NCBI RefSeq assembly: GCF_030419005.1
Contig: NZ_CP106951.1
Span: 2,170,001 to 2,234,000, forward strand
From: Eleftheria terrae
GTDB taxonomy: Bacteria > Pseudomonadota > Gammaproteobacteria > Burkholderiales > Burkholderiaceae_C
Reading direction: 5' to 3'
Length of the DNA stretch: 64,000 nt
Of the stretch, positions 7,390 through 48,298 are shown piece after piece (position 1 is the first letter of the stretch; each line of letters opens with the position of its first letter). Below the pieces are notes generated by a model. It was not told where the DNA came from and did no database searches. It saw nothing but the letters and a program-made list of their open reading frames with translations. The translations under genes and the position numbers were made by a program.

Positions 7390-7446
7390 CAGTCACCTCA
7401 AGGAGAAACAGGCTGCGGAGCGCCGCAGCAGATCACGGCGAGCGCC

Positions 7447-8493
7447 TTACTTCTTGCGCTCCAGGCCCTGCACGAACAGTCGCAGGGTGGTCGGGGGCAC
7501 TTCGCCCACCGCGGTGATCCACCAATCCTGGTAGCGCCGCGACAGGGTTTGCGTGGCCCCCATGTTCATCAGCATCTCGGCGCGATGCCGCCCGGCGTCG
7601 TAGGGCTCCACAAAGATCGAGACATGCGCCAGTCCGTCCGAGAAGATGCTCTGCAGCAGCTGGTGCGGCGGCGCACCGGCCGGGCGGCCGGCCGGCTCGT
7701 TGCCGAGCTCCCGCTTCACGCAGTTGACGTGCCGGAAGCCCGGCACCTTGTGCTTGTAGACCCAGCCTTCCTGTTCGTAGGTGGTCTTGCTGAGGGCCGG
7801 CCGATCGACCCGATAGCCCTCGAGCCGCTTCATCGGCTGGATCACCGCCTCGGGCTGCGGCTTCACGCCGATGTCCACATCCGAGAACGCGGACGACTCC
7901 AGCACTTCCTCCTCGCCGTTGAGCACCTCGGCCCGCAGCAACAGGCCGCTGACCTTCTCGGCCCACAGCCGGTAGCCATAACGATAGCCGTCACGCGGGC
8001 GCACCAGCAGCACGTCGGCCTCATGCCCCGCCACCCGCTCGCCGCCCTGCTGGCGCATCTCGTAGTGGTCCCAGAGGCGGTCGCCGTCGGTATGCAGCAG
8101 GGCCGGGAAGCTGCGGAGCGTCTCCCGATGTTCCAGCACCGCCACCTTGGAGGCGGGCCAGACGGTGGCCACCAGGTCGTTGTGCCGGAACACGCGGCGC
8201 ATCTGGCCGTCGAGCGACTCGATGCGCTCGTACTGGTTCACGCCGTCACAGTAGTGGGCAATGCGCGAACTGGCCACCTGGCCACCGGCGCTGACGACGA
8301 AGGTGCCACGGAAGTTGCGCTGCTGGGCCGCTTCATGGATGCGCAGCAGCCAGCTGCGCACTTCCGCCCGCTGCACGGGAACGTCCTGGGTCTGCGCCAG
8401 GGCCTGGAAGCTCATGAAGGCGGCCATCCCCAGGCAGAGCCAGGGAGCGAACCAGCGTCGCGCTTGCATCGGGCTCGCTTGCATAGGGATCAT
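7447..8493 (-). CDS. rseB: Sigma-E regulator RseB/MucB
   Basis: Periplasmic protein that binds the anti-sigma factor RseA and shields it from cleavage until lipid or lipopolysaccharide signals displace it. It has 348 residues from the ATG that directly abuts the rseA stop (TGAATG). Internal Met codons at residues 4 and 9 are alternative starts. A signal peptide ends near ALAQTQD. The MucB/RseB pattern is clear: NFRGTFVVSAGG, HYCDGVNQYERIESLDG, a central VAGHEADVLLVRPRD and a C-terminal domain ending VQGLERKK. The abutting start suggests translational coupling to rseA. Confidence 0.92.
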   Translation of the reverse strand: MIPMQASPMQARRWFAPWLCLGMAAFMSFQALAQTQDVPVQRAEVRSWLLRIHEAAQQRNFRGTFVVSAGGQVASSRIAHYCDGVNQYERIESLDGQMRRVFRHNDLVATVWPASKVAVLEHRETLRSFPALLHTDGDRLWDHYEMRQQGGERVAGHEADVLLVRPRDGYRYGYRLWAEKVSGLLLRAEVLNGEEEVLESSAFSDVDIGVKPQPEAVIQPMKRLEGYRVDRPALSKTTYEQEGWVYKHKVPGFRHVNCVKRELGNEPAGRPAGAPPHQLLQSIFSDGLAHVSIFVEPYDAGRHRAEMLMNMGATQTLSRRYQDWWITAVGEVPPTTLRLFVQGLERKK

Positions 8494-9195
8494 TCAGCGC
8501 TTCGGACCTTCATAGGTGGAGCTGCGCAGGAACCCGGACGGCACACCGAGTGCGGAACTGCCGGCGAATTCCTTGTGCGCGTTCAGGTATTGGTCGAGCC
8601 GGGCATCGCGCAGCAGCGCGCCATTGCCAACGATGAGGGCAGGCTCGGCGGCATCGGCCGATGCCGAGGCCGACAGCGCCACCGGCTGGAGCGCCGACGC
8701 GGCCGACGAAGCTTGCGCCAGTTGCGCACCCTCGCCGGCCCCCGGGGGCACCGACAGCCGGGTCACGACCAGCACACCAGCCACCGCCATCACACCTGCC
8801 ACGGTGGCCATCGGCGCCACCCAGGATCGGCGCCGCGCCGGCACCGGGGTGCCGTTGGCGACCTGCACCGACGGCTGAAGCAGCTGGGGCTGCGCCGCCA
8901 CCGGGGCCGCCATGGGGGCGACCACCACCGGTTCTGCGGCCAGCCGCTCGCGCAGGCGGCTGAGGAAGACGTCGTCCCGGCCGCTGCCGCAGAGGTCTTC
9001 CGAGCGCATCACGTCGCCGATCAGGTGATAGGCATGCCAGGTTTCACAGGTTCCGGCGCGCGCACGCGCATCGTCCCGCCAGGCCGACAAGGCCAGGTGC
9101 AGTTCGTCGGCCGAAGCCTCGCCGTCGCTCAGCGCCGAAAGGCGTTCACGGGCTTCGGCGCTCAGGCCGCCTACTCGCAATCGATCCATAGACAT
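8494..9195 (-). CDS. rseA: Anti-sigma-E factor RseA/MucA
   Basis: Membrane-spanning anti-sigma factor that holds RpoE inactive. The ATG at 9195 was chosen because a GAGGAG ribosome site lies seven bases upstream, giving 233 residues; an earlier in-frame ATG at 9210 lacks a site. The N-terminal cytoplasmic RseA domain (about 10-85) shows LSALSDGEAS and ETWHAYHLIGDVMRSEDL. A single membrane helix lies at about 126-146, and the periplasmic part is short and Ala-rich. It lies 15 bases after rpoE and abuts rseB. The LxDGE-type start and context make the identity firm. Confidence 0.92.
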   Translation of the reverse strand: MSMDRLRVGGLSAEARERLSALSDGEASADELHLALSAWRDDARARAGTCETWHAYHLIGDVMRSEDLCGSGRDDVFLSRLRERLAAEPVVVAPMAAPVAAQPQLLQPSVQVANGTPVPARRRSWVAPMATVAGVMAVAGVLVVTRLSVPPGAGEGAQLAQASSAASALQPVALSASASADAAEPALIVGNGALLRDARLDQYLNAHKEFAGSSALGVPSGFLRSSTYEGPKR

Positions 9196-9210
9196 CACTG
9201 CACTCCTCAC

Positions 9211-9816
9211 TCACCAACGCCTGCCGTCCGGCGTGTCCAACAGCGGCCGCAAGCGCTCGGCAATGGCCTCGCGGGCACGAAAGATACGCGAACGGACTGT
9301 TCCGATCGGGCAATTCATCACTTCGGCGATCTCGTCATAGCTCAGGCCTTCGATCTCGCGCAGGGTGATGGCCTGGCGCAGATCCTCGGATAGCGCCTCG
9401 ATCGCTGCGTTCACCGTCGAGGCGATTTCCTTGCTCGCAAGCACGGCCTCCGGTGTTTCACCATCGCTTAGTTCGTTCTCGACGCGGGAAGTTTCGTCTT
9501 CGTCGTCAGCCGACGACAACGCCGTCTCGGTCACCAGCGGATCGCGCTTGAGTTCGACCAGCGACTTCTTCGCGGTGTTGACCGCGATGCGGTAGAGCCA
9601 GGTGTAGAACGCGCTCTCACCACGGAACTGCGGCAAAGCCCGGTAGGCCCGGATGAAGGTTTCCTGGGCAATGTCCTGGATCAGGTCGGCATCGCGCACC
9701 ATGCGGGCGATCAGGCGCTCGATCTTGCGCTGGTACTTGATCACCAGCAGCTCGAAAGCTTTCTGGTCACCGCGCTTGACGCGCTCAATCAACAAGACAT
9801 CGGCGTCAGCGCTCAT
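9211..9816 (-). CDS. rpoE: RNA polymerase sigma factor RpoE (ECF family)
   Basis: Extracytoplasmic-function sigma factor for the envelope-stress regulon. The protein has 201 residues. Sigma-2 (about 25-90) contains DLIQDIAQETFIRAYRALPQF and YTWLYRIAVNTAK. Sigma-4 (about 140-190) contains LREIEGLSYDEIAEVM and the GTVRSRIFRAREA recognition helix. Between them lies an acidic linker rich in Asp and Glu. The start overlaps the preceding membrane-protein gene by 11 bases. No clear sigma-E type promoter was found directly upstream, so it may be expressed from a promoter within or before that gene. Confidence 0.96.
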   Translation of the reverse strand: MSADADVLLIERVKRGDQKAFELLVIKYQRKIERLIARMVRDADLIQDIAQETFIRAYRALPQFRGESAFYTWLYRIAVNTAKKSLVELKRDPLVTETALSSADDEDETSRVENELSDGETPEAVLASKEIASTVNAAIEALSEDLRQAITLREIEGLSYDEIAEVMNCPIGTVRSRIFRAREAIAERLRPLLDTPDGRRW

Positions 9817-10306
9817 CCGTTGCGGGCTTCATTGCGGCCAGGGGGTCGGCCACGTGAGTGGGCGAATATAACGCACGGCGCAGGGCATGCCAGGCGAGCC
9901 CCGCCTGGGCGGCCTGCAACGGCAGCCAGGCGTCGCGCCCGCGAGCCCGGCCCGGTTCGGCCTGGGGCCGCAACCGCAGCAGCATCCACCCTTGCAGGTC
10001 GGCCACCACCTCTGCCCGGCCGCGATACAGCGGAGCATCGGGCTCCGCCAGGGACTGCCAATGCCAGCAGGCGCCGTCCCAGCGGAGGCGCAGGCCGGGC
10101 CGGCGCCACTCGGCGAGCACCGGCCAGCACACCAGCAGGACCGCCGCCGCAGCCGCCACCATGCCGAGGCCTGCCGGCATCCGGGGCCACACGCCGGACA
10201 GCCAGGCCATGCCAGATGCCAGTGCCGCAAGCGCCAGCACCGACACCATCACCCGGCAACGGATGCCCGGCTGGACCGTCAGCTCGAGTGCAGGTGCCGT
10301 GCGCAT
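9806..10306 (-). CDS. Hypothetical membrane protein overlapping rpoE
   Basis: A 166-residue frame (from the ATG at 10306; an upstream ATG at 10327 is possible) with two adjacent hydrophobic segments near the N-terminus, containing VMVSVLALAALASGMAWL and GLGMVAAAAAVLLVCWPVLA. A Trp/Arg-rich cytoplasmic tail follows (CWHWQSL, DLQGWMLLRLRP). The two short helices plus tail resemble YgfX/CptA-like proteins, but this is only a shape match. It starts 28 bases after fabF and overlaps the start of rpoE by 11 bases, so its translation may set sigma-factor synthesis. Confidence 0.65.
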   Translation of the reverse strand: MRTAPALELTVQPGIRCRVMVSVLALAALASGMAWLSGVWPRMPAGLGMVAAAAAVLLVCWPVLAEWRRPGLRLRWDGACWHWQSLAEPDAPLYRGRAEVVADLQGWMLLRLRPQAEPGRARGRDAWLPLQAAQAGLAWHALRRALYSPTHVADPLAAMKPATDER

Positions 10307-10333
10307 GCGGCGGCACGCTGTTGGCAAACGACC

Positions 10334-11578
10334 TCAGACTCGCTTGAAAACCAGCGAGCCGTTGGTGCCACCGAAACCAAAGTTGTTCTTCAGCGCCACG
10401 TCGATCTTCATCTCCCGCGCGGTGTTTGCGCAGTAGTCCAGGTCGCACTCGGGATCCTGGTTGAAGATGTTGATGGTCGGCGGCGACACCTGGTGATGCA
10501 GGGCCAGCACCGTGAAGGCCGACTCGATGCCCCCCGCGCCACCGAGCAGGTGGCCGGTCATGGACTTGGTCGAGTTCACCACCAGGCTGCGGGCAGCATC
10601 GCCAAACGCCGCCTTGATGGCATTGGTCTCGTTGACGTCGCCCAGCGGTGTGGACGTGCCGTGCGCATTCAGGTACTGCACCTGGTCGGCATTGATGCCG
10701 GAGTTGCGCAGTGCCGCCTGCATGGCCCGGCGCGGGCCCTCCACGTCGGGCGCCGTCATGTGGAAGGCATCGGCGCTCATGCCAAAGCCGGACAGCTCGG
10801 CGTAGATCTTGGCGCCGCGCTTCTTTGCGTGCTCGTATTCTTCGAGCACCAGCACGCCGGCACCCTCGCCTAGCACGAAGCCGTCGCGGTCCTTGTCCCA
10901 GGGGCGCGAAGCCGTCTTGGGATCGTCATTGCGGGTCGACAGGGCCCGTGCAGCCGCGAAGCCACCCACGCCCAGGGGCGAAACGGTGGATTCGGCGCCG
11001 CCGGCGATCATCACGTCGGCGTCACCGTATTCAATCAGGCGGCCTGCCTCGCCAATGCAATGCAGGCCGGTCGTGCAGGCGGTCACGATCGCCAGATTCG
11101 GCCCCTTGAAGCCGTACTGGATCGACACATGCCCGGAGATCATGTTGATGATGGACGCCGGCACGAAAAACGGCGAGATGCGCCGCGGGCCGCGGTTGGT
11201 CATCTCGGCGTGGGTTTCCTCGATCATCGGCAGGCCGCCGATGCCCGACCCGACCAGGCAGCCGATGCGCTCAGCCAGTTCCTCGCTCAGTGCATCGCCG
11301 GTGGGCAGGCCGCTGTCCCGCACCGCCTGTATGGAAGCCGCCAATCCGTAATGGATGAAGGTGTCCATGTGGCGGGCGTCCTTGCCCGGGATGTAGTCCT
11401 CGATGTTGAAGCCCCTCACCTCACCCGCGAAACGGCAGGAGAGGCTGCTGGCATCGAACTTGGAAATGCTGTCGATGCCGGACTTGCCAGCAAGGAGATT
11501 GGACCAGGACTCGGCCACCGTGTTGCCCACGGGGGTGACAAGGCCCAGGCCGGTCACGACGACACGACGACGGCTCAT
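10334..11578 (-). CDS. fabF: 3-oxoacyl-ACP synthase II
   Basis: Condensing enzyme of fatty-acid elongation: it adds malonyl-ACP to acyl-ACP, including the temperature-responsive elongation of unsaturated chains. The 414-residue length is typical. The nucleophile is Cys168 in VTACTTG. The two His residues follow in [11 protein letters not shown] and [12 protein letters not shown], and the C-terminal [11 protein letters not shown] is conserved. It lies 40 bases after acpP at the end of the fab cluster. Confidence 0.97.
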
Positions 11579-11618
11579 GCGCTGGAATACTCTGTTCGGT
11601 CGGGAACCAGGGGGCCGA

Positions 11619-11876
<258 letters not shown>

Positions 11877-11892
11877 TCAAAAACAGCCCGTG

Positions 11893-11898
11893 ATTTTA
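11893..11898 (-). promoter_or_regulatory. -10-like box in the acpP leader
   Basis: The minus strand reads CGTAAAATC 35 bases upstream of acpP. The same word, with TAAAAT as core, stands before ychF and a close variant before lysS. No good -35 is visible at 17 bases. A separate acpP promoter would explain the high demand for the carrier. Confidence 0.35.
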
Positions 11899-11966
11899 CG
11901 GCCGATGCGGAGGCAGCTCGAAGTGCTCCGTCAAGCCGTGAACCCGGACGGGCTCTAGCCGGTTCG

Positions 11967-11983
11967 GCGCCGCGTTGCGGCGC
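11967..11983 (-). other. Hairpin directly after the fabG stop
   Basis: A 7-base perfect stem (GCGCCGC / GCGGCGC) with a 3-base loop begins at the base after the fabG stop codon. No T-run follows. It may be a processing or stability element between fabG and acpP, or a partial transcription block. Confidence 0.35.
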
Positions 11984-12733
11984 TCAGTTCATGTACATCC
12001 CGCCGTTGACGTGCAACTCGGTGCCCGTCACGTAACCGGCCTGCGGCGACGCGAGGAAGGCCACCGCATGTGCGATGTCCTCGGCACGGCCGAGCCGGCC
12101 CAGCGGAATCTGCCCCATCAGCGCTTCAGTCTGCTGCTGCGACAGGGCCTTGGTCATGTCGGTCTCGATGAAGCCGGGCGCGACACAGTTCACGGTGATG
12201 CCTCGGCTGCCCAGCTCACGCGCCAGCGAGCGCGTCATGCCTGCCACGCCGGCCTTGGCCGCTGCGTAGTTGGCCTGGCCGGGGTTGCCGCTTGCGCCCA
12301 CCACCGACGTGATGTTGACGATGCGCCCGTAGCGTTGCTTCATCATCGGCCGGATCACTGCACGGCTCAGGCGGAACACCGCCTTCAGGTTGGTGTCGAG
12401 GACCGCGTCCCAGTCATCGTCCTTCATGCGCATCGACAGGGTGTCGCGCGTGATGCCGGCATTGTTCACCAGCACATGCAGCGCGCCGAATTCCTTGACG
12501 ATGCCATCGACGGCCGCCTCGACGCCCGCGGCGTCGTTGACGTTCAGGCACAGGCCCCGGCAGCCGGCAAAGGCGCCGAGCGTGTCGCCAATGGTCGCTG
12601 CGCCGGCCTCGGACGTCGCCGTGCCCACCACCTTCATGCCCTTGCGCGCGAGCTCCAGCGCAATGGCGCGGCCGATGCCGCGTGTTGCGCCGGTGACCAG
12701 CGCCACCTGGCCGGTGCTGTCGATTTCGTTCAT
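11984..12733 (-). CDS. fabG: 3-oxoacyl-ACP reductase
   Basis: NADPH-dependent reductase of the fatty-acid cycle, a short-chain dehydrogenase. It has 249 residues. The cofactor motif TGATRGIG is at about 14-21 and the NNAG motif at 90-93. The catalytic set is Ser143, Tyr156 and Lys160 (YAAAK). The C-terminus ends with VNGGMYMN. Its start overlaps the fabD stop by four bases (ATGA), so translation is coupled. Confidence 0.97.
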   Translation of the reverse strand: MNEIDSTGQVALVTGATRGIGRAIALELARKGMKVVGTATSEAGAATIGDTLGAFAGCRGLCLNVNDAAGVEAAVDGIVKEFGALHVLVNNAGITRDTLSMRMKDDDWDAVLDTNLKAVFRLSRAVIRPMMKQRYGRIVNITSVVGASGNPGQANYAAAKAGVAGMTRSLARELGSRGITVNCVAPGFIETDMTKALSQQQTEALMGQIPLGRLGRAEDIAHAVAFLASPQAGYVTGTELHVNGGMYMN

Positions 12734-13668
12734 TGCAGCCCCCCCTTCACCTCGGCGAGCGACGCCGGGTCATAGACCGTGCCGGTGGTCAGCTCGGCAT
12801 CGATGCGTTTCACCATGCCGGCCAGGACCTTGCCCGGACCGCATTCGTACACCTGTCGAAGGCCACGGGCCTTGAGCGCCTGGATGGTCTCCACCCAGCG
12901 CACCGCGCCATAGGCCTGACGATACAGTGCATCGCGGATGGCGGCCGGCTCGGTCTCGATCCGCACGTCCACATTGTTGAGGACGTCGATGCCGCCCGCA
13001 TTGAAGTTGGTGCTTGCCAGCCGTTCGCGCAGCCGCACGGCGGCCGGCTCCATCAGGCTGGAATGGAAAGGCGCGGACACCGGCAGCGGCAACGCACGCT
13101 TGGCTCCCTTGGCCTTCAGCACCTCGCACGCCTTCTCGACCGCTGCCTTGGTACCGGCGATCACCGTCTGCTTGGGATCGTTGAAATTGACCGCCTCGAC
13201 GGCTTCGCCGACGGCAGCGGCCGCCTCGGCACACCCCTCACGCACCAGCGCGGCGTCAAGGCCGAGGATGGCTGCCATGCCGCCTGTGCCCACCGGCACT
13301 GCTTCCTGCATCGCCTGGGCGCGGAAGCGCACGAGCGGCAGCGCATCGGCCAGCGCCAGCGTGCCGGCGGCCACCAGTGCGGTGTACTCGCCGAGCGAGT
13401 GGCCGGCCATGATGGCCGGGCGCAAGCCGGTTTCCGCCAGCCAGGCGCGGTAGCAGGCGATGCCCGCGGTCAGCATGACCGGCTGCGTGTTGGTGGTGAG
13501 GTCGAGCGATTCCTTGGGGCCTTGCGCGATCAGCTGCGCGATGTCTTGCCCCAGGGCGTCGGAGGCTTCCTGCAGGGTCTCACGCACGGCCGGGTGGTCG
13601 CCCCAGGCATCGAGCATGCCGACGGATTGCGATCCCTGGCCGGGAAACACGAAGGCGAATGGACTCAT
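12730..13668 (-). CDS. fabD: Malonyl-CoA:ACP transacylase
   Basis: Transfers malonyl from CoA to ACP, supplying extender units for fatty acids. It has 312 residues. The N-terminus reads FVFPGQGSQ, the nucleophile is Ser91 in GHSLGEY, and the catalytic His lies in VSAPFHSSLM. The C-terminal AGMVKRI is also typical. It is followed by fabG with a four-base overlap and preceded by fabH after a 53-base gap. Confidence 0.97.
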   Translation of the reverse strand: MSPFAFVFPGQGSQSVGMLDAWGDHPAVRETLQEASDALGQDIAQLIAQGPKESLDLTTNTQPVMLTAGIACYRAWLAETGLRPAIMAGHSLGEYTALVAAGTLALADALPLVRFRAQAMQEAVPVGTGGMAAILGLDAALVREGCAEAAAAVGEAVEAVNFNDPKQTVIAGTKAAVEKACEVLKAKGAKRALPLPVSAPFHSSLMEPAAVRLRERLASTNFNAGGIDVLNNVDVRIETEPAAIRDALYRQAYGAVRWVETIQALKARGLRQVYECGPGKVLAGMVKRIDAELTTGTVYDPASLAEVKGGLQ

Positions 13669-14714: not shown

Positions 14715-15820
14715 GCAGTAGAGGCGACCCGTACCGGATCCTCTGCAGCCGCCGATGACGGCAAGGCCTGCAGAGTCTCCAGGATCTGGTCATGCACCCG
14801 GTCGAGCAACCGGTTTCGGGCCGCATCATACGCCCGATTCAAGGCTTGCTCGAAAGCGAAGGCGTCTGCCGAGCCATGGCTCTTGAAGACCAGCCCACGC
14901 AGACCCAGCAGCGCCGCGCCGTTGTAGCGTCGGTAATCGACGCGATTCTTGAAGTGCTTCAACACCGGCAGCGCGACGATGGCAGCCAGCTTGGTGAAGA
15001 CGTTGCGGGTGAATTCCTGCTTGATGAAGCTCGACAGCATCGACGCCAGGCCCTCGGAGGCCTTCAGCACCACATTGCCGACGAAGCCGTCGCAAACGAC
15101 GATGTCGGTGGTGCCCTTGAAGATGTCGTTGCCCTCGACGTTGCCGTAGAAGTTCACATGACCGGCCTCGGCCACCGAACGCAGCAACTCCCCGGCACGC
15201 TTGATCGTGTCGCTGCCCTTGATCGCCTCTTCGCCGATGTTCAGCAGGCCGACCGTCGGACTGGCCTTGCCTTCGACGGCGGCCACCAGCGCACTGCCCA
15301 TCAGGGCAAACTGCAGCAGGTGGTGCGGCTCGCAATCGACATTGGCGCCCAGGTCCAGCACCGTGGTGTAGCCGTCCTTTTGGTTCGGCATCACGGTGGC
15401 AATGGCGGGTCGGTCGATGCCGTCCAGCGTCTTCAATAGATAGCGGGACACCGCCATCAGGGCGCCAGTGTTGCCGGCAGAGACGCAAGCGTCGGCCGCC
15501 GTGGCACCGCCCTCACCCGGCTTGACCTGGGTGATGGCGACACGCATGGACGAATCCTTCTTGCGGCGCAGGGCCACCTCGACGGGATCGTCCATCTCGA
15601 CCACTTCACTGGCCGCGACCACAGTGCAACGCGCCCAGCCCCGCGCAAGCGCCAACGCCTCGGGGCGGCCGACCAGGATCAGCTCGACACCGGGATGCGC
15701 GCGCAGGAAGGCTTCGCAGGCAGGCAGGGTCACCGACGGACCAAAGTCGCCACCCATGCAGTCCACGGCAATGCGCACGGAACGCATTGCCCGCGGAGAA
15801 ACATCAGCAGAGGAATTCAT
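14711..15820 (-). CDS. plsX: Phosphate acyltransferase PlsX
   Basis: Converts acyl-ACP to acyl-phosphate, the acyl donor for glycerol-3-phosphate acylation in phospholipid synthesis. From the ATG at 15820 the protein has 369 residues. The family start is [12 protein letters not shown], followed by [37 protein letters not shown] and [14 protein letters not shown] second ATG beginning MRSVRIAVD is an equally plausible start, since neither has a strong ribosome site. It lies between rpmF and fabH. Confidence 0.95.
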
Positions 15821-15993
15821 CGCTGGAACCGGAGATACCGGAAAAGGTCGGCCCTCAGGCCCACCCCGCCGCGCCCCGAGCAGCGCTCGCCGGGCCCACC
15901 AAAGCAAGGACTGCAACAGGCAGCGACCCGCTGAAACATCGCCTCAAAGGCCGCATGCTCCGGCAGGCCGACCCGCCGCCCCGATCGCACGGA

Positions 15994-16176
15994 TCAGGCG
16001 TCAGCCTTGGTCTTGAGGACCTTGCGACCGCGGTAGAAACCGTTCGGGCTGATGTGGTGACGGAGATGGGTTTCGCCGGTGGTCGGCTCGATCGCGGTCC
16101 CCGGGGTCTCCAGGTGTTGGTGGGCGCGGTGCATACCACGCTTAGACGGCGATTTTTTGTTCTGTTGAACGGCCAT
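15994..16176 (-). CDS. rpmF: 50S ribosomal protein L32
   Basis: Small ribosomal protein of 60 residues with the family pattern [18 protein letters not shown] at the start. It has no cysteines, so it is the zinc-free type. The ATG at 16176 has an AAGGAG ribosome site. It lies between the DUF177 gene and plsX, the usual arrangement linking ribosome and lipid synthesis. The frame remains open upstream but only as GC-rich noise. Confidence 0.97.
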
Positions 16177-16200
16177 GGCTCGCTCCTTGGAAAACCCGAG

Positions 16201-16206
16201 ATTGTA
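16201..16206 (-). promoter_or_regulatory. -10-like box upstream of rpmF
   Basis: The minus strand reads TACAAT 25 bases before the rpmF start codon. The -35 region is poor (GGCGTT at 17 bases). It may give rpmF its own start of transcription in the 175-base gap after DUF177. Apart from this and the rpmF ribosome site nothing was recognised in that gap. Confidence 0.35.
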
Positions 16207-16351
16207 GCAGCTGTGAAGCAAACAACGCCAGTGGCAAATCGCGCCGAAACGCGAGACGCGGGGCAGGAGTGCACAACACCGGCCCCGGACGCGGGCGCAC
16301 GCTTGCATGCCAACCGGCCCCATGCCGCCGCCCGTGGCCGCGGCGCGCGGC

Positions 16352-16966: not shown

Positions 16967-17611
16967 ATGCCGCCCATGTCTGCTTCCGACTTCCCCACGG
17001 CGCCCGTGCGCGCCCTCATCCTGGCCTCCACTTCCCGTTATCGGCGAGAACTCCTGCAGCGGCTGGGCCTGCCGTTCGACGTGCAAGCGCCGCAGGTGGA
17101 CGAGACGCCGGGCGCCGGCGAAGCCCCCGCGGCGCTGGCCGAACGCCTGGCCCTGGCAAAGGCAGCCGCCGTCGCTGCGCTGCATCCCCAGGCGGTGGTC
17201 ATCGGCTCCGACCAGGTGGCGGACCTGGCCGGTGAGCCCATCGGCAAGCCGGGCGACCATGCCCGCGCCGCCGAGCAATTGCGCCGCATGAGCGGCCAGG
17301 CGGTGGTGTTCCACACCGGCGTGGCGGTGGTGTGCGCAGCCAGCGGCCTGCAAGCGGTGCGGCGGGTGCCGGTGACGGTGCGCTTTCGCGCGCTGGGGCA
17401 TGCCGAGATCGAACGCTACCTGCGCGCGGAGCAACCCTATGACTGCGCCGGCAGCGCCAAGGCAGAAGGCCTGGGCATTGCCCTGCTCGACGCGATCGAG
17501 TCCGACGACCCGACGGCCCTGATCGGCCTGCCGCTGATCCAGACCTGCGCCCTGCTGCGCACCGCGGGCCTCGACCCCCTGGCCGCCGCGGGATCGGGAG
17601 CGAGCGAATGA
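16967..17611 (+). CDS. Maf-like nucleotide pyrophosphatase
   Basis: Nucleoside triphosphate pyrophosphatase of the Maf/YceF subgroup, which removes modified nucleotides such as 7-methyl-GTP. The protein has 214 residues from the first ATG (16967); the ATG at 16976 (MSASDFP) may be the true start. The substrate loop ASTSRYRRELL is at about 20-30, QVDETPGAGE follows, and the acidic catalytic region reads IGSDQVADLAGEPIGKPG. The C-terminal GIALLDAIESDDPTALIGLPL is typical. It overlaps the next gene by four bases. Confidence 0.88.
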   Translation: MPPMSASDFPTAPVRALILASTSRYRRELLQRLGLPFDVQAPQVDETPGAGEAPAALAERLALAKAAAVAALHPQAVVIGSDQVADLAGEPIGKPGDHARAAEQLRRMSGQAVVFHTGVAVVCAASGLQAVRRVPVTVRFRALGHAEIERYLRAEQPYDCAGSAKAEGLGIALLDAIESDDPTALIGLPLIQTCALLRTAGLDPLAAAGSGASE

Positions 17612-41183: not shown

Positions 41184-42278
41184 ATGAGCCTCAAATGCGG
41201 CATTGTCGGCTTGCCCAACGTCGGCAAGTCCACGCTGTTCAACGCCCTTACCAAAGCCGGCATCGCCGCCGAGAACTACCCGTTCTGCACGATCGAGCCC
41301 AATGTCGGCGTGGTGGAGCTGCCCGACCCGCGCCTGGCGGCGCTGTCGGCCATCGTCAAGCCGGAGCGGGTGGTGCCGGCCATCGTCGAGTTTGTCGACA
41401 TCGCCGGCCTGGTGGCCGGCGCCTCCAAGGGCGAGGGCCTGGGCAACCAGTTCCTGGCCCACATCCGCGAGACCGACGCCATCGTCAACGTGGTGCGCTG
41501 CTTCGACGACCCGAACGTGATCCACGTGGCCGGCAAGGTCGACCCCATCTCCGACATCGAAGTCATCCAGACGGAGCTGTGCCTGGCCGACCTGGCCACC
41601 GTCGAGAAGAGCCTGCAACGCTACACCAAGGTGGCGCGGGCCGGTGGCGACAAGGAAGCGCAGCGTCTGGTGGACGTGCTGAAGCAGTGCGAGGTCTCGC
41701 TGAACGAAGGCAAGCCGGTGCGCTCCATCAGCTTCAGCAAGGAAGAGCAGGCCGTGCTCAAGCCCTTGTGCCTGATCACCGCCAAGCCGGCGATGTTCGT
41801 CGGCAACGTGGATGAAAGCGGCTTCGAGAACAACCCCTTCCTCGACCGGCTGCGCGAGTACGCCGCGCAGCAGAACGCGCCGGTGGTGGCCATCTGCGCC
41901 AAGACCGAAGCCGAGCTGGCCGACATGGAAGAAGAAGACCGGCTGATGTTCCTGCAGGAGATGGGTCAGGACGAGCCGGGCCTGAACCGCCTGATCCGCG
42001 CCGCCTTCAAGCTGCTGGGGCTGCAGACCTACTTCACGGCCGGCGTGAAGGAAGTGCGCGCCTGGACGGTGCCCATCGGCGCCACCGCCCCGCAGGCCGC
42101 CGGCGTCATCCACACCGACTTCGAGCGCGGCTTCATCCGCGCCCAGACCATCGCCTACGACGACTACATCGCCTACAAGGGCGAGCAGGGCGCGAAGGAC
42201 GCGGGCAAGATGCGGGCGGAAGGCAAGGAGTACGTCGTGAAGGACGGGGACGTGCTGCATTTCTTGTTCAACGTCTGA
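41184..42278 (+). CDS. ychF: Redox-regulated ATPase YchF
   Basis: Obg-related P-loop protein of 364 residues that prefers ATP and associates with ribosomes and stress control. The P-loop GLPNVGKST is at 9-17, [17 protein letters not shown] is switch I and [21 protein letters not shown] is G3. The G4 position is altered ([10 protein letters not shown]), as is normal for YchF. The C-terminal TGS domain includes [12 protein letters not shown] and [12 protein letters not shown]. The expected start and end are present. Confidence 0.97.
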
Positions 42279-42791
42279 GGACCATGGACCTGGAGCGCGG
42301 TGGCAGCCTGCGCCGCCGCTCCCAGGGCCACCGAAGCGGGCGAGCGGGCATGCGGCGCAAGGCACCGTTCCGCCACCGCGGTGTCGCAGACCTACCATAC
42401 GCATCGCCGGGCTTTTCGAAGCTCGACGATGATGCGTCTGCTACTCTGTTCTGCACCATCCGCCCAGGAATTTATGGCAGGCCACAACAAGACTTCGAGC
42501 GATTGCCCGCTGCTTGCTCGCCCGGCACCCGCCGGAAATGGCCTGCCCCCCGCGATTTCGGAATCTGAATCGCTTTCTTTCTGTGCCTGCTCCCCCAGGC
42601 GCAACCGCATGCACTCCCCGCGTGCGCCTTGTTGAGCGCCGCCTCTCGCCGGTGTCGGCCATGAGGAGCCAGGCCTCTCCCTGCTCTCTCGGCGTCCGCT
42701 GGGATGCTGCACACACGGCGCGACGTCGCACGGCCATCAGGACATGAGCCCGATCGTGAGCGGACTTTGACGCGAAGCTCCGGAGTGACAG
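42279..42791. other. 513-base intergenic region before the deacetylase cluster
   Basis: No convincing gene, promoter or terminator was found. It is less GC-rich than the flanking genes. A 53-codon plus-strand frame (42474-42635) begins with an ATG after CCAGGA and encodes a Ser/Pro/Arg-rich peptide, but nothing supports it further. A TTTGAC word is at 42766-42771, too close to the start codon to serve as a normal -35. It is likely the upstream control region of the cluster. Confidence 0.4.
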
Positions 42792-44318
42792 ATGCAAATT
42801 TGCTTGCCGGCAGATGACGAGATTCGGTCCCTGCAGTCGCAGGAACAAGGGTTCTACTGGAGCGCCTGCTGCGACAACCTGCTGCGCAAGCATGGCGTCA
42901 TTCCCTGGCCGCCTGCCACATCACCCGGCACAGCGAGCTTGCGCATCTTCACCCGCGGCGGAGAGCCGGGCGACTGCACCGACCCTGTCTTGCTCGAAGG
43001 ACCCTTGTCTGCATCCGCGCTGAGGCAATGGGGGCTGGTCGCACAGAACCACGAGGCATCGTCGCTGCAACTGCATGCGGCCGCGGGACGCAAACTTTCG
43101 CCGTTCGAATATCCACGGGCGATGTTGCTCGCCAAGCATCCGGTCACCGGCGCCCGGGGTGAGCCATATCTGCATGTGCCAGCCGAGCGCCGGCACCACC
43201 GGGTGTCGTTCCAATTCCAGTCATTCGAACCCGCAAACGGTTGGAAGCCGGTGCTGTTCGCCTCGCAAGGCGAGGCGGACGAGCGGCTACTTGCGGTGGC
43301 GGTCACCGACGGCCGTCGATTGGCGCTCGGCATTCCGCTGATCGATCTTCTATGCTCGATGATGGCCTGGCCACCCCTTCCGGACGGCTACTTCCGGATG
43401 GCCAGCGAATTGCCCAGCACCAGCCTCGAGCTGTGGCTCGTCGATGCCCTGCACCGTCTTGCGACGGACAACCGCGTGCCCTGGATCCGGGTTGCTCCCT
43501 GGCCCGGCGGCAGCAAGTGGGCATGCACCGTGCGGGCTGACTACGACAGGCCGATCACCGACACTCAACTGAGGCGGCTACTGGCCGTATATGAACGCCA
43601 CCATATCCGGGCAAGCTGGTGCTTTCTCGAGTGGAACTGCCCGGCACATCAAACCCAGCTGCTGGCGCGCGCCGGCCATGAAGCGGCCCTGCACACCGGT
43701 GCCAGAACGCAGCAGGACTTCGACGCGGAAATCGCATCCATCGAGTTGGAAACCGGGCTCTCCCTCGCAGGCGTCACATCGCATGGCGGGGACTATGTCG
43801 GCTTCCTCGGCGACATGCAGTACCAGTGGGCCGAGCAGGCCGGCATGCGCTGGAGCGAGTCCATCGGCCGGGTCAGCCGATGGCCGAACCGGGTCGTGCA
43901 CATCGTGGACGGCATTCCGCGCACCAGCCGCCTGATGCTGATGCCGACCCACTCCAGCCTCGATGCCGGCACGAAGCCCGACCAGCATTACCTTGACCGA
44001 GTGATCCGGGCACGGAAATCCGCCGTTGCCGAGGGCGGCCATTTCGTGTTCATGAACCACCCCGACCTGCATGAAGCCCAAGTGGTCGAGGCCCTGCACT
44101 TGACCGGCCTGCCCCAGCCCTGGTCGGCGACTTTCGATGAGGTCGCCCGCTGGGCCGGCAGCAGCAAGTACGACATCGAACTGCAAGTAGCCGCCGATGG
44201 AGTGCATGCGGTGTTTGCCGAGCCGGTCGGTTTCGATTTCAGTATCGAATCAGAAAGCGGTGCCGGTCGGCGGGTCGTGCCCGTCGCAGCGGGCGCTACC
44301 CGTATCAAGGTGATTTGA
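42792..44318 (+). CDS. Divergent polysaccharide-deacetylase-like protein A
   Basis: A 508-residue protein with no signal peptide or membrane helix, so probably cytoplasmic. The N-terminal 240 residues form an unassigned domain (QEQGFYWSACCDNLLRKHGVI, LLEGPLSASAL, PVLFASQGEADERLLAVAV, LGIPLIDLLCSMMAW). The C-terminal half reads as a NodB-like domain: CTVRADYDRP (Asp250, Asp252), GHEAALHTG (His296, His301), GVTSHGGDY (His331) and VFMNHPDLHE (His423, His427). The usual TFDDG and HSxxH motifs are altered, so activity is uncertain. It shares the same order of motifs with the gene at 45686, so the two are paralogues. Possible roles are glycan or amino-sugar modification. Confidence 0.75.
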   Translation: MQICLPADDEIRSLQSQEQGFYWSACCDNLLRKHGVIPWPPATSPGTASLRIFTRGGEPGDCTDPVLLEGPLSASALRQWGLVAQNHEASSLQLHAAAGRKLSPFEYPRAMLLAKHPVTGARGEPYLHVPAERRHHRVSFQFQSFEPANGWKPVLFASQGEADERLLAVAVTDGRRLALGIPLIDLLCSMMAWPPLPDGYFRMASELPSTSLELWLVDALHRLATDNRVPWIRVAPWPGGSKWACTVRADYDRPITDTQLRRLLAVYERHHIRASWCFLEWNCPAHQTQLLARAGHEAALHTGARTQQDFDAEIASIELETGLSLAGVTSHGGDYVGFLGDMQYQWAEQAGMRWSESIGRVSRWPNRVVHIVDGIPRTSRLMLMPTHSSLDAGTKPDQHYLDRVIRARKSAVAEGGHFVFMNHPDLHEAQVVEALHLTGLPQPWSATFDEVARWAGSSKYDIELQVAADGVHAVFAEPVGFDFSIESESGAGRRVVPVAAGATRIKVI

Positions 44319-44333
44319 CCTGAGGTGAAGACG

Positions 44334-45665
44334 ATGACCACAGACCCGATCCACGGCCCCATCGGCCTCGTGCTTTCCGACAGTTCTCACCGGGACCTGG
44401 AGATCAAGAAGCTGAAAGAAGTGGCTCCCGAGCTGACCCGACGCTCGACACGCATCTTCGCGCAGAACATGGGCATCGCGATGTACCCGCCCGACCAGGC
44501 GGTCGTCGGTTCCTTCTACTACCCCGACGGCGCCGCCGGCTTCGACCTGCTCGCCCTGGGCACCAACAACCGCATATTCCGGGGGCCGTGGGGACATGCC
44601 TTCTACCGCCGGTTGAACACGATGCTGTCCCCCGGTGGGCGCCTCGTGTTGCCTTTGACGCCAAGGGCGAGCGAGCGGGGCTACTGGACGATGGAGGAAC
44701 TGCGAGAGCTGTTCCGCAACGAAGGGCAGGTCTCCGAGTCAGGCGCCTTCATCACCTTCCCAAAGTGCCCGGACATGGCGCCCAGCGATTCCCTGCTGGA
44801 CTGGTATTTCGACAACTATGCGCAGCTGATCTGCGGCGACATGGTGAATCGCCTCATCGGCCAGGCGGCACATGTGCAGCGTTTCGACGACCTGTTTCTG
44901 GAACTGGCCCTGGACGGTGCGGCCACACTGGTCGATGCCCCTCGACGCTGGGTGACGCAGGGCGAGGTGCTGAAAGACACCCGCTGGTTCGACAGCGCCG
45001 AAGCCAACGAGAAAAATCCGTCCAAGACCCTCGGGTCCGAACTGTCGGCCAGCCTGAAGGTGGCCAGCTACCTCATCTCCGGGCTCAGCTACAAGGCTGC
45101 GGTGATGGAGTACATCATCCGCACATATTGCCGTGCCAAGGGCCCGCTGTCGTATGTGGACTTCGGCGGCGCATTCGGCCAGCTGGTCATCGAGCTGCTG
45201 CTCGACCCGCGGACCCGGCTGCAGAAAGGTGTCTGCTGCGACTTCAACAATCTTTACATCGCGAGTGCCTACCGGATCTACCGCGGGCTGCGCGACAAGC
45301 TGTACAACCGCTTTTTCGTCAGCGGCAGCAAGATGCAGGACTTCCGGTTCGACCAATCCTATTCGGTCATTTCGTCCTTCTCGACGCTGCTGTATGTGCC
45401 GAGGGATCAACGCATCCCGACCCTCGAGCGATGCTGGGAACATCTGGCGCCAGGCGGAGTGATGGTGATCTTCGAGGCACCGAAGGCGAATCCCAAGAAC
45501 AAGGACTACGGCGTGCAATTCACCGCCGCCGAACTCGACGACGTTCTGGGCCGCTTCGGTGAAGTGCACAGAGTGGGGGCCACGGAGATTTGCACCATCT
45601 CCGCCGAGGAGGCGAAGGAGAACTCGGTGTTTCGCGTCGTCGCCAAGCCGCCATCGGATGGTTGA
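44334..45665 (+). CDS. Two-part methyltransferase-like protein
   Basis: A 443-residue soluble protein. The C-terminal half is a class I SAM methyltransferase: motif I YVDFGGAFGQLVIELLLD at about 274-291, an acidic strand end in GVCCDFNNLYIASAYRI, then SVISSFSTLLYVPRDQ and LAPGGVMVIFEAPK. The N-terminal half (about 65-145) has late methyltransferase motifs (FDLLALGTNNRIF, MLSPGGRLVLPLTPRASERGYW, MEELRELFRNEG) but no SAM-binding glycine motif. That suggests a decayed or accessory domain. The ATG at 44334 has a GAGGTG site. It lies 15 bases after deacetylase-like A and 20 bases before B. Confidence 0.75.
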   Translation: MTTDPIHGPIGLVLSDSSHRDLEIKKLKEVAPELTRRSTRIFAQNMGIAMYPPDQAVVGSFYYPDGAAGFDLLALGTNNRIFRGPWGHAFYRRLNTMLSPGGRLVLPLTPRASERGYWTMEELRELFRNEGQVSESGAFITFPKCPDMAPSDSLLDWYFDNYAQLICGDMVNRLIGQAAHVQRFDDLFLELALDGAATLVDAPRRWVTQGEVLKDTRWFDSAEANEKNPSKTLGSELSASLKVASYLISGLSYKAAVMEYIIRTYCRAKGPLSYVDFGGAFGQLVIELLLDPRTRLQKGVCCDFNNLYIASAYRIYRGLRDKLYNRFFVSGSKMQDFRFDQSYSVISSFSTLLYVPRDQRIPTLERCWEHLAPGGVMVIFEAPKANPKNKDYGVQFTAAELDDVLGRFGEVHRVGATEICTISAEEAKENSVFRVVAKPPSDG

Positions 45666-45685
45666 CTGGCAGGGAGTCCTCCAGA

Positions 45686-47227
45686 TTGATCGAAATCATC
45701 ATCCCCGATCTGCCAGCCACCCGGCAACTTCAGGAGACGCAAGGGCGCTACTACTGGAGTCGCGCGGCGGAGTTGCTGTTTCGCAGGGAGGGCGTCATCT
45801 CGGTGCGCCGCACGTGCAGGCCGTCTGCCGACACATCCACCCTGCTCATCTGCCGTGACACGGCAGCGCCGTCCGACAGTGGCAAGCAGCCGCGGGTCTT
45901 CGAAGGCCCCTTGCCGGCAGACACGCTGGACACCCTGGGGCTGCAGCCGACCTGCTGTGAGGCTCAGACCTTGATGGTCGACCACAACAGCTCGCTTGCC
46001 CTCCACCTGCCCGAGATCCTGGTCCGCAGGGCGGACAAGACGACAGCTGCGCTCGATTTCGACGACAGCGCCGCAAAGTGGCGGAACTCGCCTTTCCAGG
46101 TCCAGTTCCTGAGCGGTGCCGGCTGGACGCCGGTGCTGTACGCGACCGAGCCGACCCGTGGCCTGGAAGGCGCCATCGCCGTGCGGCGCGGCCGGGATCT
46201 CGTCATCGGCGTGTCGGCTTTCGACCTGTTGGCTCGCTGGCTCGCGGTGCCGCCGCTGGCAGCCCGCTACGGCGGCTTCTCGCGCATGATGCGCCACGAT
46301 CTCTTGAGCGAGCGTTTCGTATCGCTCGTGCTCGAGCATGCGGGCAGTACCGGCGGCACGCCGGCACTCGTCATTGATCGCTGGCCACGGGGCCATTCCT
46401 CGGCATTGACTGTTCGCCACGACTATGACCGGCAGGCCGATCCTTCGCTCATCCAACACCTGCTTCAGCACTACGACGACCTGGGCGTGCGCGCCAGCAT
46501 CGGTTTCCTGCCCTACTTCCTGGAGCAAGACACCATCGCAGCATTCGAGGCCCGCGGTCATGAGATCCAGGGGCACGTTGCATCGCCGACACGGATCGAT
46601 CTGCGGGAAGACCTGCGGCGGCTGCGCAACGAGTCTCGCGGGCCCGTGCTCGGCGTCACGATCCACGGGGGCCCGCAGGGTATCGGGTTTCGTGGCCAGA
46701 CGCACTTCGAGTGGTTCGACGACAACGGCCTCGGGTACTGCGAGACGTTCGGCATCCGGGACACCATTCCGGTGCCGGTGTGCCGGCTCTATGACGACGT
46801 GCCGGACTGCTCCCGGATGATCGCCACCCCGGGCCACCTGAGCCTGGACGGCTCGACCGCCCCTGACGACCACCGTCTCGACACCCTGCTCGTTTCGGTG
46901 CCGCGCAGCCTCGAGCGCGGTAACCACACCATCATCATGAACCATCCCGATGTACATCACGACCAGCTGTGCACGCTGTTGTCGCGGATTCGATGGCGTG
47001 GTGTGTGGCGGGCCACAACCGCGGAGGTCATCCAATGGCACCGGGTCAGCCGCTATGAGAGCGTCGCACGCTGGACCGCAGCGGGGTACGAGGTGTCGTT
47101 CCCGCAGTCGCTCCCGCATGTCGCCACACTGTCCGCCGGCCATGCGCGGTTCGAGCTGGAGGTGCAGGCGCAGCCGCAACGCTGCCCGATGCCTGCACCG
47201 GCCGGCGTGGCCGGCCAGGGAGGCTGA
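45686..47227 (+). CDS. Divergent polysaccharide-deacetylase-like protein B
   Basis: Paralogue of the product at 42792. No ATG fits; a TTG at 45686, after CAGGGAG, gives 513 residues whose start (IEIIIPDLPATRQLQETQG) lines up with the start of A. The same pattern follows: VFEGPLPADTL, PVLYATEPTRGLEGAIAV, LTVRHDYDRQ (Asp246, Asp248), GHEIQGHVAS (His292, His297), GVTIHGGPQG (His327) and IIMNHPDVHHD (His420, His424). There is no signal peptide. By eye, identity to A is moderate at the motifs and low between them, so the duplication is not recent. It is the last gene of the three; a hairpin follows. Confidence 0.74.
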   Translation: MIEIIIPDLPATRQLQETQGRYYWSRAAELLFRREGVISVRRTCRPSADTSTLLICRDTAAPSDSGKQPRVFEGPLPADTLDTLGLQPTCCEAQTLMVDHNSSLALHLPEILVRRADKTTAALDFDDSAAKWRNSPFQVQFLSGAGWTPVLYATEPTRGLEGAIAVRRGRDLVIGVSAFDLLARWLAVPPLAARYGGFSRMMRHDLLSERFVSLVLEHAGSTGGTPALVIDRWPRGHSSALTVRHDYDRQADPSLIQHLLQHYDDLGVRASIGFLPYFLEQDTIAAFEARGHEIQGHVASPTRIDLREDLRRLRNESRGPVLGVTIHGGPQGIGFRGQTHFEWFDDNGLGYCETFGIRDTIPVPVCRLYDDVPDCSRMIATPGHLSLDGSTAPDDHRLDTLLVSVPRSLERGNHTIIMNHPDVHHDQLCTLLSRIRWRGVWRATTAEVIQWHRVSRYESVARWTAAGYEVSFPQSLPHVATLSAGHARFELEVQAQPQRCPMPAPAGVAGQGG

Positions 47228-47294: not shown

Positions 47295-47328
47295 CCGGCT
47301 AGACTCGACTGTTATCTAGTCCGGTTTT
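47295..47328 (+). terminator. Possible terminator after the deacetylase cluster
   Basis: CCGGCTAGA (47295-47303) pairs with TCTAGTCCGG (47315-47324), with one bulged base and an 11-base loop, followed by TTTT. It lies 68 bases past the stop of deacetylase-like B and 38 bases before the next gene. The short T-run makes it moderate. The CTAGA/TCTAG arms could instead be an operator for the aldo/keto reductase gene. Confidence 0.4.
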
Positions 47329-47365
47329 GAGACAGCCGGCGCTGCTTTGCCCTCCATCACCGACC

Positions 47366-48298
47366 ATGAGCGCCTTCTCTCCTTCGCCTTCCGCCACCAA
47401 GGCGCCCCTCACCCCCCTCTCCCCCACCGGCGGCCACCTTTCCCGCATCGTCGCCGGCGCCTGGCGCATGGATGCCTGGGGCTGGACGCCGCAGCAGCGG
47501 CTGCGCTGGATCGAGCAGAACCTGGAGCTGGGCGTCACCAGCTTCGACCATGCCGACATCTACGGCGGCTACACCGTCGAAGGCCTGTTCGGCGAAGCCC
47601 TGGCCCTGGCCCCCGCGCTGCGCCAGCAGATGCAGCTGGTCAGCAAGTGCGGCATCCAGCTGGTGGCCCCCATGCGGCCCGAGCACCGGCTCAAGGCCTA
47701 TGACACCAGCCGGGCCCACATCGTCGCCTCGGCCGAACGCTCGCTGCAGGAACTGCGCACCGACCACCTCGACCTGCTGCTCATCCACCGCCCCGACCCG
47801 CTGATGGACGCCGACGAAGTGGCCCGCGCCTTCGACGACCTGCGCCAGGCCGGCAAGGTGCGGCATTTCGGCGTCTCCAACTTCACGCCCGCGCAGTTCA
47901 GCCTGCTGGCCAGCCGCACCGAGCTGGTCACCCACCAGGTGGAATGCTCCCCCCTGCAGCTCGGCGTGCTGCACGACGGCACCCTCGACCAGGCGCAGCA
48001 ACTGCGCTTCAAGCCAATGATCTGGTCGCCGCTGGCCGGCGGCCGCCTGTTCACCGCCGACGACGAGCGCAGCCGCCGTGTGCGCGCCTGCCTGGAGGCT
48101 GTCGGCCAGCGCCTGCAGTGCAGCGCGGCCACCGCCGCCTATGCCTGGCTGCTGCGCCATCCCTCCCAGCCGCTGCCCATCGTCGGCTCCAGCCGCGTCG
48201 AGGCGCTGCGCGAAGCCGTCGCGGCCCTCGGCCTGTCGATGGACGCGCCCACCTGGCATGAAATCTGGACCGCCAGCACCGGCCACGAAGTGCCCTGA
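47366..48298 (+). CDS. Aldo/keto reductase (YdhF-like)
   Basis: NADPH-dependent oxidoreductase of 310 residues. Family marks are IVAGAWRMDAWGW near the start, SFDHADIYGGYTVEGLFGEAL with the catalytic Asp and Tyr, LVSKCGIQL with Lys, and DLLLIHRPDPLMD with His. Also present are RHFGVSNFTPAQF and IVGSSRVEAL for cofactor binding. It belongs to the group containing E. coli YdhF. The ATG at 47366 was chosen by alignment with the family; an earlier frame start exists but has no support. Substrate unknown. Confidence 0.9.
   Translation: MSAFSPSPSATKAPLTPLSPTGGHLSRIVAGAWRMDAWGWTPQQRLRWIEQNLELGVTSFDHADIYGGYTVEGLFGEALALAPALRQQMQLVSKCGIQLVAPMRPEHRLKAYDTSRAHIVASAERSLQELRTDHLDLLLIHRPDPLMDADEVARAFDDLRQAGKVRHFGVSNFTPAQFSLLASRTELVTHQVECSPLQLGVLHDGTLDQAQQLRFKPMIWSPLAGGRLFTADDERSRRVRACLEAVGQRLQCSAATAAYAWLLRHPSQPLPIVGSSRVEALREAVAALGLSMDAPTWHEIWTASTGHEVP

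What the first reader, a model, noticed from the sequence alone, without database searches (positions are those of the whole stretch)
42792..47227. Deacetylase-like / methyltransferase-like / deacetylase-like gene set of unknown function
Three close co-directional genes encode soluble proteins: two diverged paralogues with a new N-terminal domain plus a degenerate NodB-like domain, and between them a methyltransferase-like protein with an extra half-domain. They follow a 513-base gene-poor, less GC-rich stretch and end at a hairpin. I recognise no described system with this order. Duplicated deacetylase-like enzymes around a methyltransferase suggest stepwise modification of one substrate, possibly a nucleotide- or lipid-linked glycan, or a small metabolite. 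The substrate is inference only.
Basis: partly seen in the sequence, partly recalled or inferred. Interest (0 to 1): 0.75.

Follow-up and report, generated by a model that had tools for sequence, protein, structure and literature searches.

The report
Sugar deacetylase and methyltransferase gene set
Three neighbouring bacterial genes look like a rare, undescribed toolkit that strips acyl groups from sugars of a cell-surface polysaccharide and methylates it; in two unrelated bacteria the stripping and methylating enzymes are fused into one protein.

Summary
A (42792-44318), MT (44334-45665) and B (45686-47227) are close co-directional genes for soluble proteins; A and B are paralogues (30% identity, E 4e-53). 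No Pfam or NCBIfam model fits A or B. The model of A (pLDDT 90) is an alpha/beta domain, a NodB/CE4-type deacetylase barrel and a small beta domain; it aligns over its whole length with the polysaccharide deacetylase PelA, and over 1-461 (poor rmsd) with heparan N-deacetylase NDST1. MT is a class I methyltransferase behind a degenerate half methyltransferase. The set is rare but recurs: 3 of 3 other genomes found carry both families, fused in a Geminicoccaceae and a Desulfovibrionales MAG, separate in Caenimonas sedimenti, all beside glycan genes. Here it is an orphan at a variable ychF/aldo-keto-reductase junction. The host also has an MT paralogue in a capsule locus with WbpA/B/D/E-like genes, companions shared with Caenimonas. 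Best reading: cytoplasmic amine unmasking plus methylation of amino sugars in an ABC-exported polysaccharide. Substrate, metal and methylated atom are untested. New variant of a known kind.

The parts
42792..44318 (+). Gene A: NodB/CE4-fold deacetylase-like protein, 508 aa
   Evidence: invariant residues
42792..43499 (+). A residues 1-236: N-terminal mixed alpha/beta domain, counterpart of the domain before the deacetylase in PelA and NDST1
   Evidence: not folded or searched alone
43500..44171 (+). A residues 237-460: NodB-type barrel with R248, D250, D252, H301, H331, E356, H423
44175..44315 (+). A residues 462-508: C-terminal beta strands
44334..45665 (+). Gene MT: class I SAM methyltransferase-like protein, 443 aa
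44334..44813 (+). MT residues 1-160: degenerate half methyltransferase domain
   Evidence: secondary structure; hhalign to the C-terminal half, probability 46%, E 3.2e-5
45021..45662 (+). MT residues 230-443: catalytic methyltransferase domain with motif I DFGGAFG
45686..47227 (+). Gene B: paralogue of A, 513 aa from TTG 45686
   Evidence: not modelled
42279..42791 (.). 513-base gap after ychF, with a terminator-like hairpin at 42552-42573
47295..47324 (+). Hairpin (9 pairs) followed by TTTT, downstream of B
   Evidence: the stretch is not better than shuffles
41184..42278 (+). ychF, left anchor of the variable junction
47360..48298 (+). Aldo/keto reductase, right anchor of the variable junction

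Best explanation
A-MT-B is a horizontally acquired glycan-tailoring module that works in the cytoplasm on an amino-sugar polysaccharide before ABC-transporter export. A and B are NodB-superfamily hydrolases that remove N-acyl (most likely N-acetyl) groups: D250 as base, oriented by R248, a divalent metal on D252, H301 and probably H331, and H423 as acid. The N-terminal domain helps to guide the glycan, as proposed for PelA, Agd3 and NDST1. MT then methylates the same residue, most likely on the unmasked amine (as NodS follows NodB in Nod factors; recalled), otherwise on a neighbouring hydroxyl. Two deacetylase paralogues would serve two N-acyl positions or two sugars. The natural candidate substrate is the 2,3-diacetamido-uronic acid expected in the host's own capsule. 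Shown: fold, residue conservation, co-occurrence and fusion, glycan-locus context of relatives, presence at a variable site. Inferred: catalysis, metal, substrate, order of steps, methylated atom, action in trans on the host capsule.
For: A has the deacetylase fold with high confidence and 12 of 12 rows keep R248, D250, D252, H296, H301, H331, E356, S389, H399, N422, H423, P424, D425. A-family and MT-family sequences are adjacent or fused in 3 of 3 other genomes; P0007 joins an A-like part to another methyltransferase; two more A/MT pairs share contig lengths. Deacetylase parts are also fused to hexapeptide acyltransferases in L008 and L009. Relatives sit beside glycosyltransferases, nucleotide-sugar enzymes and, in L009, an ABC permease and ATPase. 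WbpB, WbpD/WlbB-type and WbpE proteins occur both in the Caenimonas locus and in the host capsule locus with the MT paralogue. No export signal or membrane stretch fits SAM-dependent chemistry in the cytoplasm.
Confidence: 0.45

Rival explanations
1. Same glycan setting, but MT is an O-methyltransferase that caps the chain or decorates a hydroxyl (as WbdD caps the E. coli O9a chain), while A and B deacetylate other residues; there is no N-methyl product.
For: In L009 the set directly follows an ABC permease and ATPase, as expected for ABC-dependent polymers, whose chain length WbdD regulates in O9a (start of the abstract of PMC3482155).
Against: Fusion of A to MT in L008 and L010 suggests coupled steps; no kinase-like model was found in MT.
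Confidence: 0.22
2. A and B hydrolyse an amide of a small or lipid-linked molecule (deformylase like ArnD, or PuuE-like) and MT modifies the same small molecule; the glycan loci are only where that sugar precursor is used.
Against: The N-terminal domain pairs with that of polymer-acting PelA; neighbours are assembly and export genes as well as nucleotide-sugar genes.
Confidence: 0.15
3. A and B are non-catalytic glycan-binding pseudoenzymes that present substrate to MT.
For: Loss of the second metal histidine in 12 of 12 rows; an inactive CE4 relative is known among the fold matches (BA3943).
Against: Base, first metal pair and acid candidates are invariant in 12 of 12 rows across several phyla, unlike a decaying active site.
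Confidence: 0.1
4. The genes are variable-junction cargo with another role, for example phage defence.
For: The same junction holds unrelated inserts in G002 and G006.
Against: PADLOC: no match for A or B; for MT only mads_2 at 1.4e-6 with no stretch passing on its own. The three relatives whose surroundings could be read lie among glycan genes.
Confidence: 0.05

Closest known systems
PelA deacetylase (CE21; 9cgy)
   Different: 11% identity; PelA is periplasmic, has a glycoside hydrolase domain and an HxxxH metal pair that A lacks; no methyltransferase partner in the passages seen
NDST1 (heparan N-deacetylase/N-sulfotransferase) and Agd3 (CE18)
   Different: rmsd 10.4; the transferase is a sulfotransferase; metal site D320-H389-H393 differs; Agd3 was not among the rows shown
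CE4/NodB deacetylases and PuuE-like proteins (3rxz, 1z7a, 3cl6)
   Different: 14-18% identity; no methyltransferase partner is recalled for them
NodB-NodS-NodA of Nod factor synthesis (recalled)
   Same: Logic: deacetylate an amino sugar, then N-methylate or N-acylate it; relatives here are fused to methyltransferase or acyltransferase
   Different: No sequence match of MT to the Pfam NodS model; substrate here unknown; literature searches gave no usable paper
TylM1/DesVI/CalS10/KedS8 sugar N-methyltransferases
   Different: 14-16% identity, tied with many other methyltransferases; they lack the N-terminal half-domain as far as the rows show

Membership tests
NodB/CE4-type deacetylase superfamily (A, B) | deformed (beta/alpha) barrel deacetylase fold | tested here: met
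   A: model; B by homology only
NodB/CE4-type deacetylase superfamily (A, B) | motif 1 acidic base and metal ligand (DxD or DD) | tested here: met
   D250 and D252 in 12 of 12 rows
NodB/CE4-type deacetylase superfamily (A, B) | motif 2 HxxxH metal pair | tested here: not met
   H301 12 of 12, but position 305 is His in 0 of 12; so not filed as a canonical CE4 member
NodB/CE4-type deacetylase superfamily (A, B) | catalytic acid histidine of motif 5 | tested here: met
   H423 in MNHPD, 12 of 12 rows; aligned to NHP of 3rxz
NodB/CE4-type deacetylase superfamily (A, B) | deacetylase activity | not testable with these tools
   needs an assay
PelA (CE21) family | whole-length domain order shared with PelA | tested here: met
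   9cgy aligned over model 1-508, at rmsd 5.8
PelA (CE21) family | H526-type histidine before the base and HxxxH metal pair | tested here: not met
   R248 in place of the histidine and no second histidine (PelA residues from PMC12022489)
NDST/Agd3 (CE18) architecture | N-terminal domain plus deacetylase in one fold | tested here: inconclusive
   9f6z aligned over 1-461 but rmsd 10.4; Agd3 not in the rows shown
Class I SAM methyltransferase (MT) | Rossmann-like fold with motif I | tested here: met
Class I SAM methyltransferase (MT) | SAM-dependent methyl transfer and its acceptor atom | not testable with these tools
   needs an assay
NodB-NodS tailoring logic | methylation of the amine freed by the deacetylase | not testable with these tools
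   inferred from fusion and co-occurrence only
WbdD-type chain terminator | kinase plus methyltransferase acting on the non-reducing end | tested here: inconclusive
   no kinase model in MT; capping without a kinase is not excluded

The most novel reading that the evidence does not exclude
A cytoplasmic acyl-to-methyl exchange system: paired NodB-like deacetylases plus a fused or adjacent methyltransferase replace N-acetyl by N-methyl (and, through the hexapeptide-deacetylase fusions, by other acyl groups) on 2,3-diamino-uronic acids of ABC-exported capsules. It would be a bacterial counterpart of NDST in logic, with methyl instead of sulfo transfer and a new metal-ligand arrangement (H331 for the second histidine of HxxxH).
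Probability: 0.2. Interest if true: 0.65.

Novelty: new variant of a known kind. Interest (0 to 1): 0.5.

Why it matters
If right, it adds a deacetylase family outside current Pfam and NCBIfam models and shows deacetylases repeatedly joined to the enzyme that would modify the freed position (methyltransferase, hexapeptide acyltransferase). It predicts N-methylated or re-acylated sugars in capsules and O-antigens, and the question is testable because the host also carries a capsule locus with the same companion genes as the Caenimonas relative.

Tried and rejected
Rejected: ordinary named pathway genes (no Pfam or NCBIfam model reaches A or B at E <= 1; MT stays below every cut-off). Virus or plasmid origin: in viral contigs 9 stretches matched a pattern and none encodes a relative; MT and B give no match in plasmids (A was not tried there, and phage records were not searched); the viral structure library gives 10 matches at E <= 0.001, several named tail proteins and one a polysaccharide deacetylase, taken as the shared fold. 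Defence. PHROGs: nothing for A or B, a tRNA methyltransferase family for MT at 4.8e-6. Rfam and tRNA: none. A repeat of the ychF 3' end bordering the window's insert: nothing above background.

Limits. Profile A3 was too diverse for the genome-contig scan, so A5 was used. In the profile searches of genomes only the best 3 or 4 first-look candidates per genome were scored, so a miss there is weaker than it looks. The protein searches scored only the 7,997 best candidates each; B itself did not come up, and B was never a query alone there, so relatives of B may have been missed. Profile E-values for sequences that are rows of the profile are high by construction. The PDB profile search for MT also listed antibody and solute-binding chains, taken as chance. 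Literature searches for such a system found no description; that speaks only of those searches in an open-access library.

Rows dropped: P0006, P0007 and P0009 from A3, A5 and A6 (fragment; fusion; N-terminal part probably out of frame); also P0003, P0012 and P0013 from A5; P0007 and P0018 from A4 and A7. P0006 and the first 480 residues of P0007 are in the tree, P0009 is not.

Full report
What is there. Three + strand genes follow one another with gaps of 15 and 20 bases: A 42792-44318, MT 44334-45665, B 45686-47227. A and B are paralogues (E 3.8e-53). None of the three proteins has a membrane-like stretch. A and B match no Pfam or NCBIfam family at E <= 1; MT reaches Methyltransf_12 at 2.7e-5, 25.2 bits against a cut-off of 30.

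How rare it is. Among 5.8 billion clustered proteins A finds 10 relatives besides itself and MT finds 6 (the 7,997 best candidates were scored in each); profile A3 returns the same 10. A pattern scan of the genome collection (84,980 species) gives 47 stretches, of which 3 encode a relative: a Geminicoccaceae MAG (L008), Caenimonas sedimenti (L009) and a Desulfovibrionales MAG (L010). With profile A6 at E <= 1e-9 only the host matches among 399 genomes of its family, 369 of its class and 398 of its phylum, own genome included each time and only 3 or 4 candidates per genome scored. In 399 order genomes at E <= 1e-3, 61 match; the 60 others score no better than 2.9e-8 and match only within profile positions 227-359, the NodB core. 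That is evidence of remote homology to ordinary NodB deacetylases, not of the family. MT is found in 1 of 60 relatives, the host.

Association. In 3 of 3 other genomes MT-family sequence lies next to or fused with A-family sequence. L008 9806-12820 (1,004 aa) and L010 1545-4451 (968 aa) are fusions. L009 has A 7372-8907, a second MT-like ORF 8873-10180, MT about 10192-11418 (start not settled) and A' 11420-12799. L009 and L008 also carry an 858- and an 883-aa protein with a hexapeptide domain in front of an A-like part, 38% identical to each other; the host has no such fusion. P0007 joins an A-like part to a different methyltransferase. For P0004/P0015 and P0005/P0016 co-location is inferred from equal contig lengths. 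For P0006, P0008, P0009 and P0011-P0013 the neighbourhood is unknown; P0010 is the A' of L009.

Neighbourhoods. L008: glycosyltransferases, two sulfotransferases, an MBOAT protein, a KAS III gene and an aaRS-core protein just below its cut-off. L009: nucleotide-sugar dehydrogenase, oxidoreductase, hexapeptide acetyltransferase, DegT aminotransferase, methyltransferase, ABC permease (just below cut-off) and ATPase, then the set, then a glycosyltransferase. L010: part of a UDP-GlcNAc 2-epimerase, methyltransferase, cytidylyltransferase, two glycosyltransferases, a B12 radical SAM protein, an oxidoreductase. By closest solved relative the L009 oxidoreductase is WbpB (1.3e-143), the aminotransferase WbpE (4e-115) and the acetyltransferase 3mqg (7e-96; recalled as WlbB). 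WbpA/B/D/E make UDP-2,3-diacetamido-2,3-dideoxy-glucuronic acid (recalled).

The host's capsule locus. The host has an MT paralogue (8e-26 and 32% identity over residues 245-440; G000:C2:3353972-3355330) beside a C5-epimerase-like gene, two Capsule_synth proteins (L011, L066), an export protein, a KpsM-like permease (below the NCBIfam cut-off) and an ABC ATPase, and a nucleotide-sugar dehydrogenase, an oxidoreductase (3q2i, 2e-187), an acetyltransferase (3mqg, 6e-99) and WbpE (2e-129). The acetyltransferase and aminotransferase are 75% and 64% identical to those in L009; the host oxidoreductase does not match the L009 one at 1e-8 but matches one in L010 (45%); L008 and its fetched surroundings match none of the four. 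No A-like gene lies there: in the host the profile finds A, B and one stretch at E 0.02 elsewhere. That the orphan set acts on this capsule is inference.

Acquisition. ychF is followed within 70 bases by the aldo/keto reductase in G003, G004 and G005; the two lie 17.9 kb apart in G002 and 8.2 kb apart in G006; G001, G007 and G008 have no reductase match at E <= 1e-60. The G002 insert holds a 5,068-aa ORF (RHS-like by eye), an IS-like ORF (by eye), a PIN-domain gene and a second, 48-base copy of the ychF 3' end; the window has no such copy. Third-position GC of A, MT and B (0.77-0.83) is below the 0.92-0.94 of the nearest neighbours. Loss in the relatives instead of gain in the host is possible, but the spread of the family makes gain likelier.

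Active site. Against PelA's H526-x-D528-x-D530 the family has R248-x-D250-x-D252 in 12 of 12 rows; PMC12022489 describes a mostly conserved arginine that activates the base in CE4 and CE18 enzymes. H301 stands for the first metal histidine, H423 for the acid. The second metal histidine is absent (0 of 12). H331, invariant and just after a barrel strand, is my candidate substitute. H387 is kept in 11 of 12. Distances were not measured: no coordinates were available.

Paralogues. In a tree of 16 rows Caenimonas A groups with window A (81/82, below the star threshold), Caenimonas A' with P0011 and P0007 (starred); B is a long unresolved branch. So deacetylase plus MT is a recurring unit; the exact triple is not shown to be conserved.

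Verdict. A real, rare, uncharacterised set. Glycan tailoring is likely (about 0.8 by my judgement); N-deacetylation followed by N-methylation is the single most likely chemistry but unproven. Interest is moderate: unusual fusion logic and an unlisted deacetylase family, but of a known kind.

Noticed in passing
L009:12831-15407 and L008:17220-19871: A hexapeptide acyltransferase-like domain in front of an A-like deacetylase part in one protein, 38% identical between the two: a possible acyl-exchange enzyme.
   Followed up: partly
L051 (G002:C4:9300-28700), second copy at 17187-17234: The ychF/aldo-keto-reductase junction holds a 17.9 kb insert with a 5,068-aa RHS-like ORF (by eye), a PIN-domain gene and a 48-base second copy of the ychF 3' end, as if ychF were an integration site.
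   Followed up: partly
L052 (G006:C1:5322900-5332600): An 8.2 kb insert at the same junction in which no clear long gene stood out; possibly decayed.
   Followed up: no
L008:13797-14999 and 14945-16324: An aaRS-core-like protein (just below the Pfam cut-off) and a 459-aa protein without Pfam match in the Geminicoccaceae glycan locus, near a KAS III gene and sulfotransferases.
   Followed up: no
L011:9575-12520 (host G000:C2 near 3.353 Mb): MT paralogue with a divergent motif I (EHGGNAG) next to a D-glucuronyl C5-epimerase-like gene in the host's capsule locus.
   Followed up: partly
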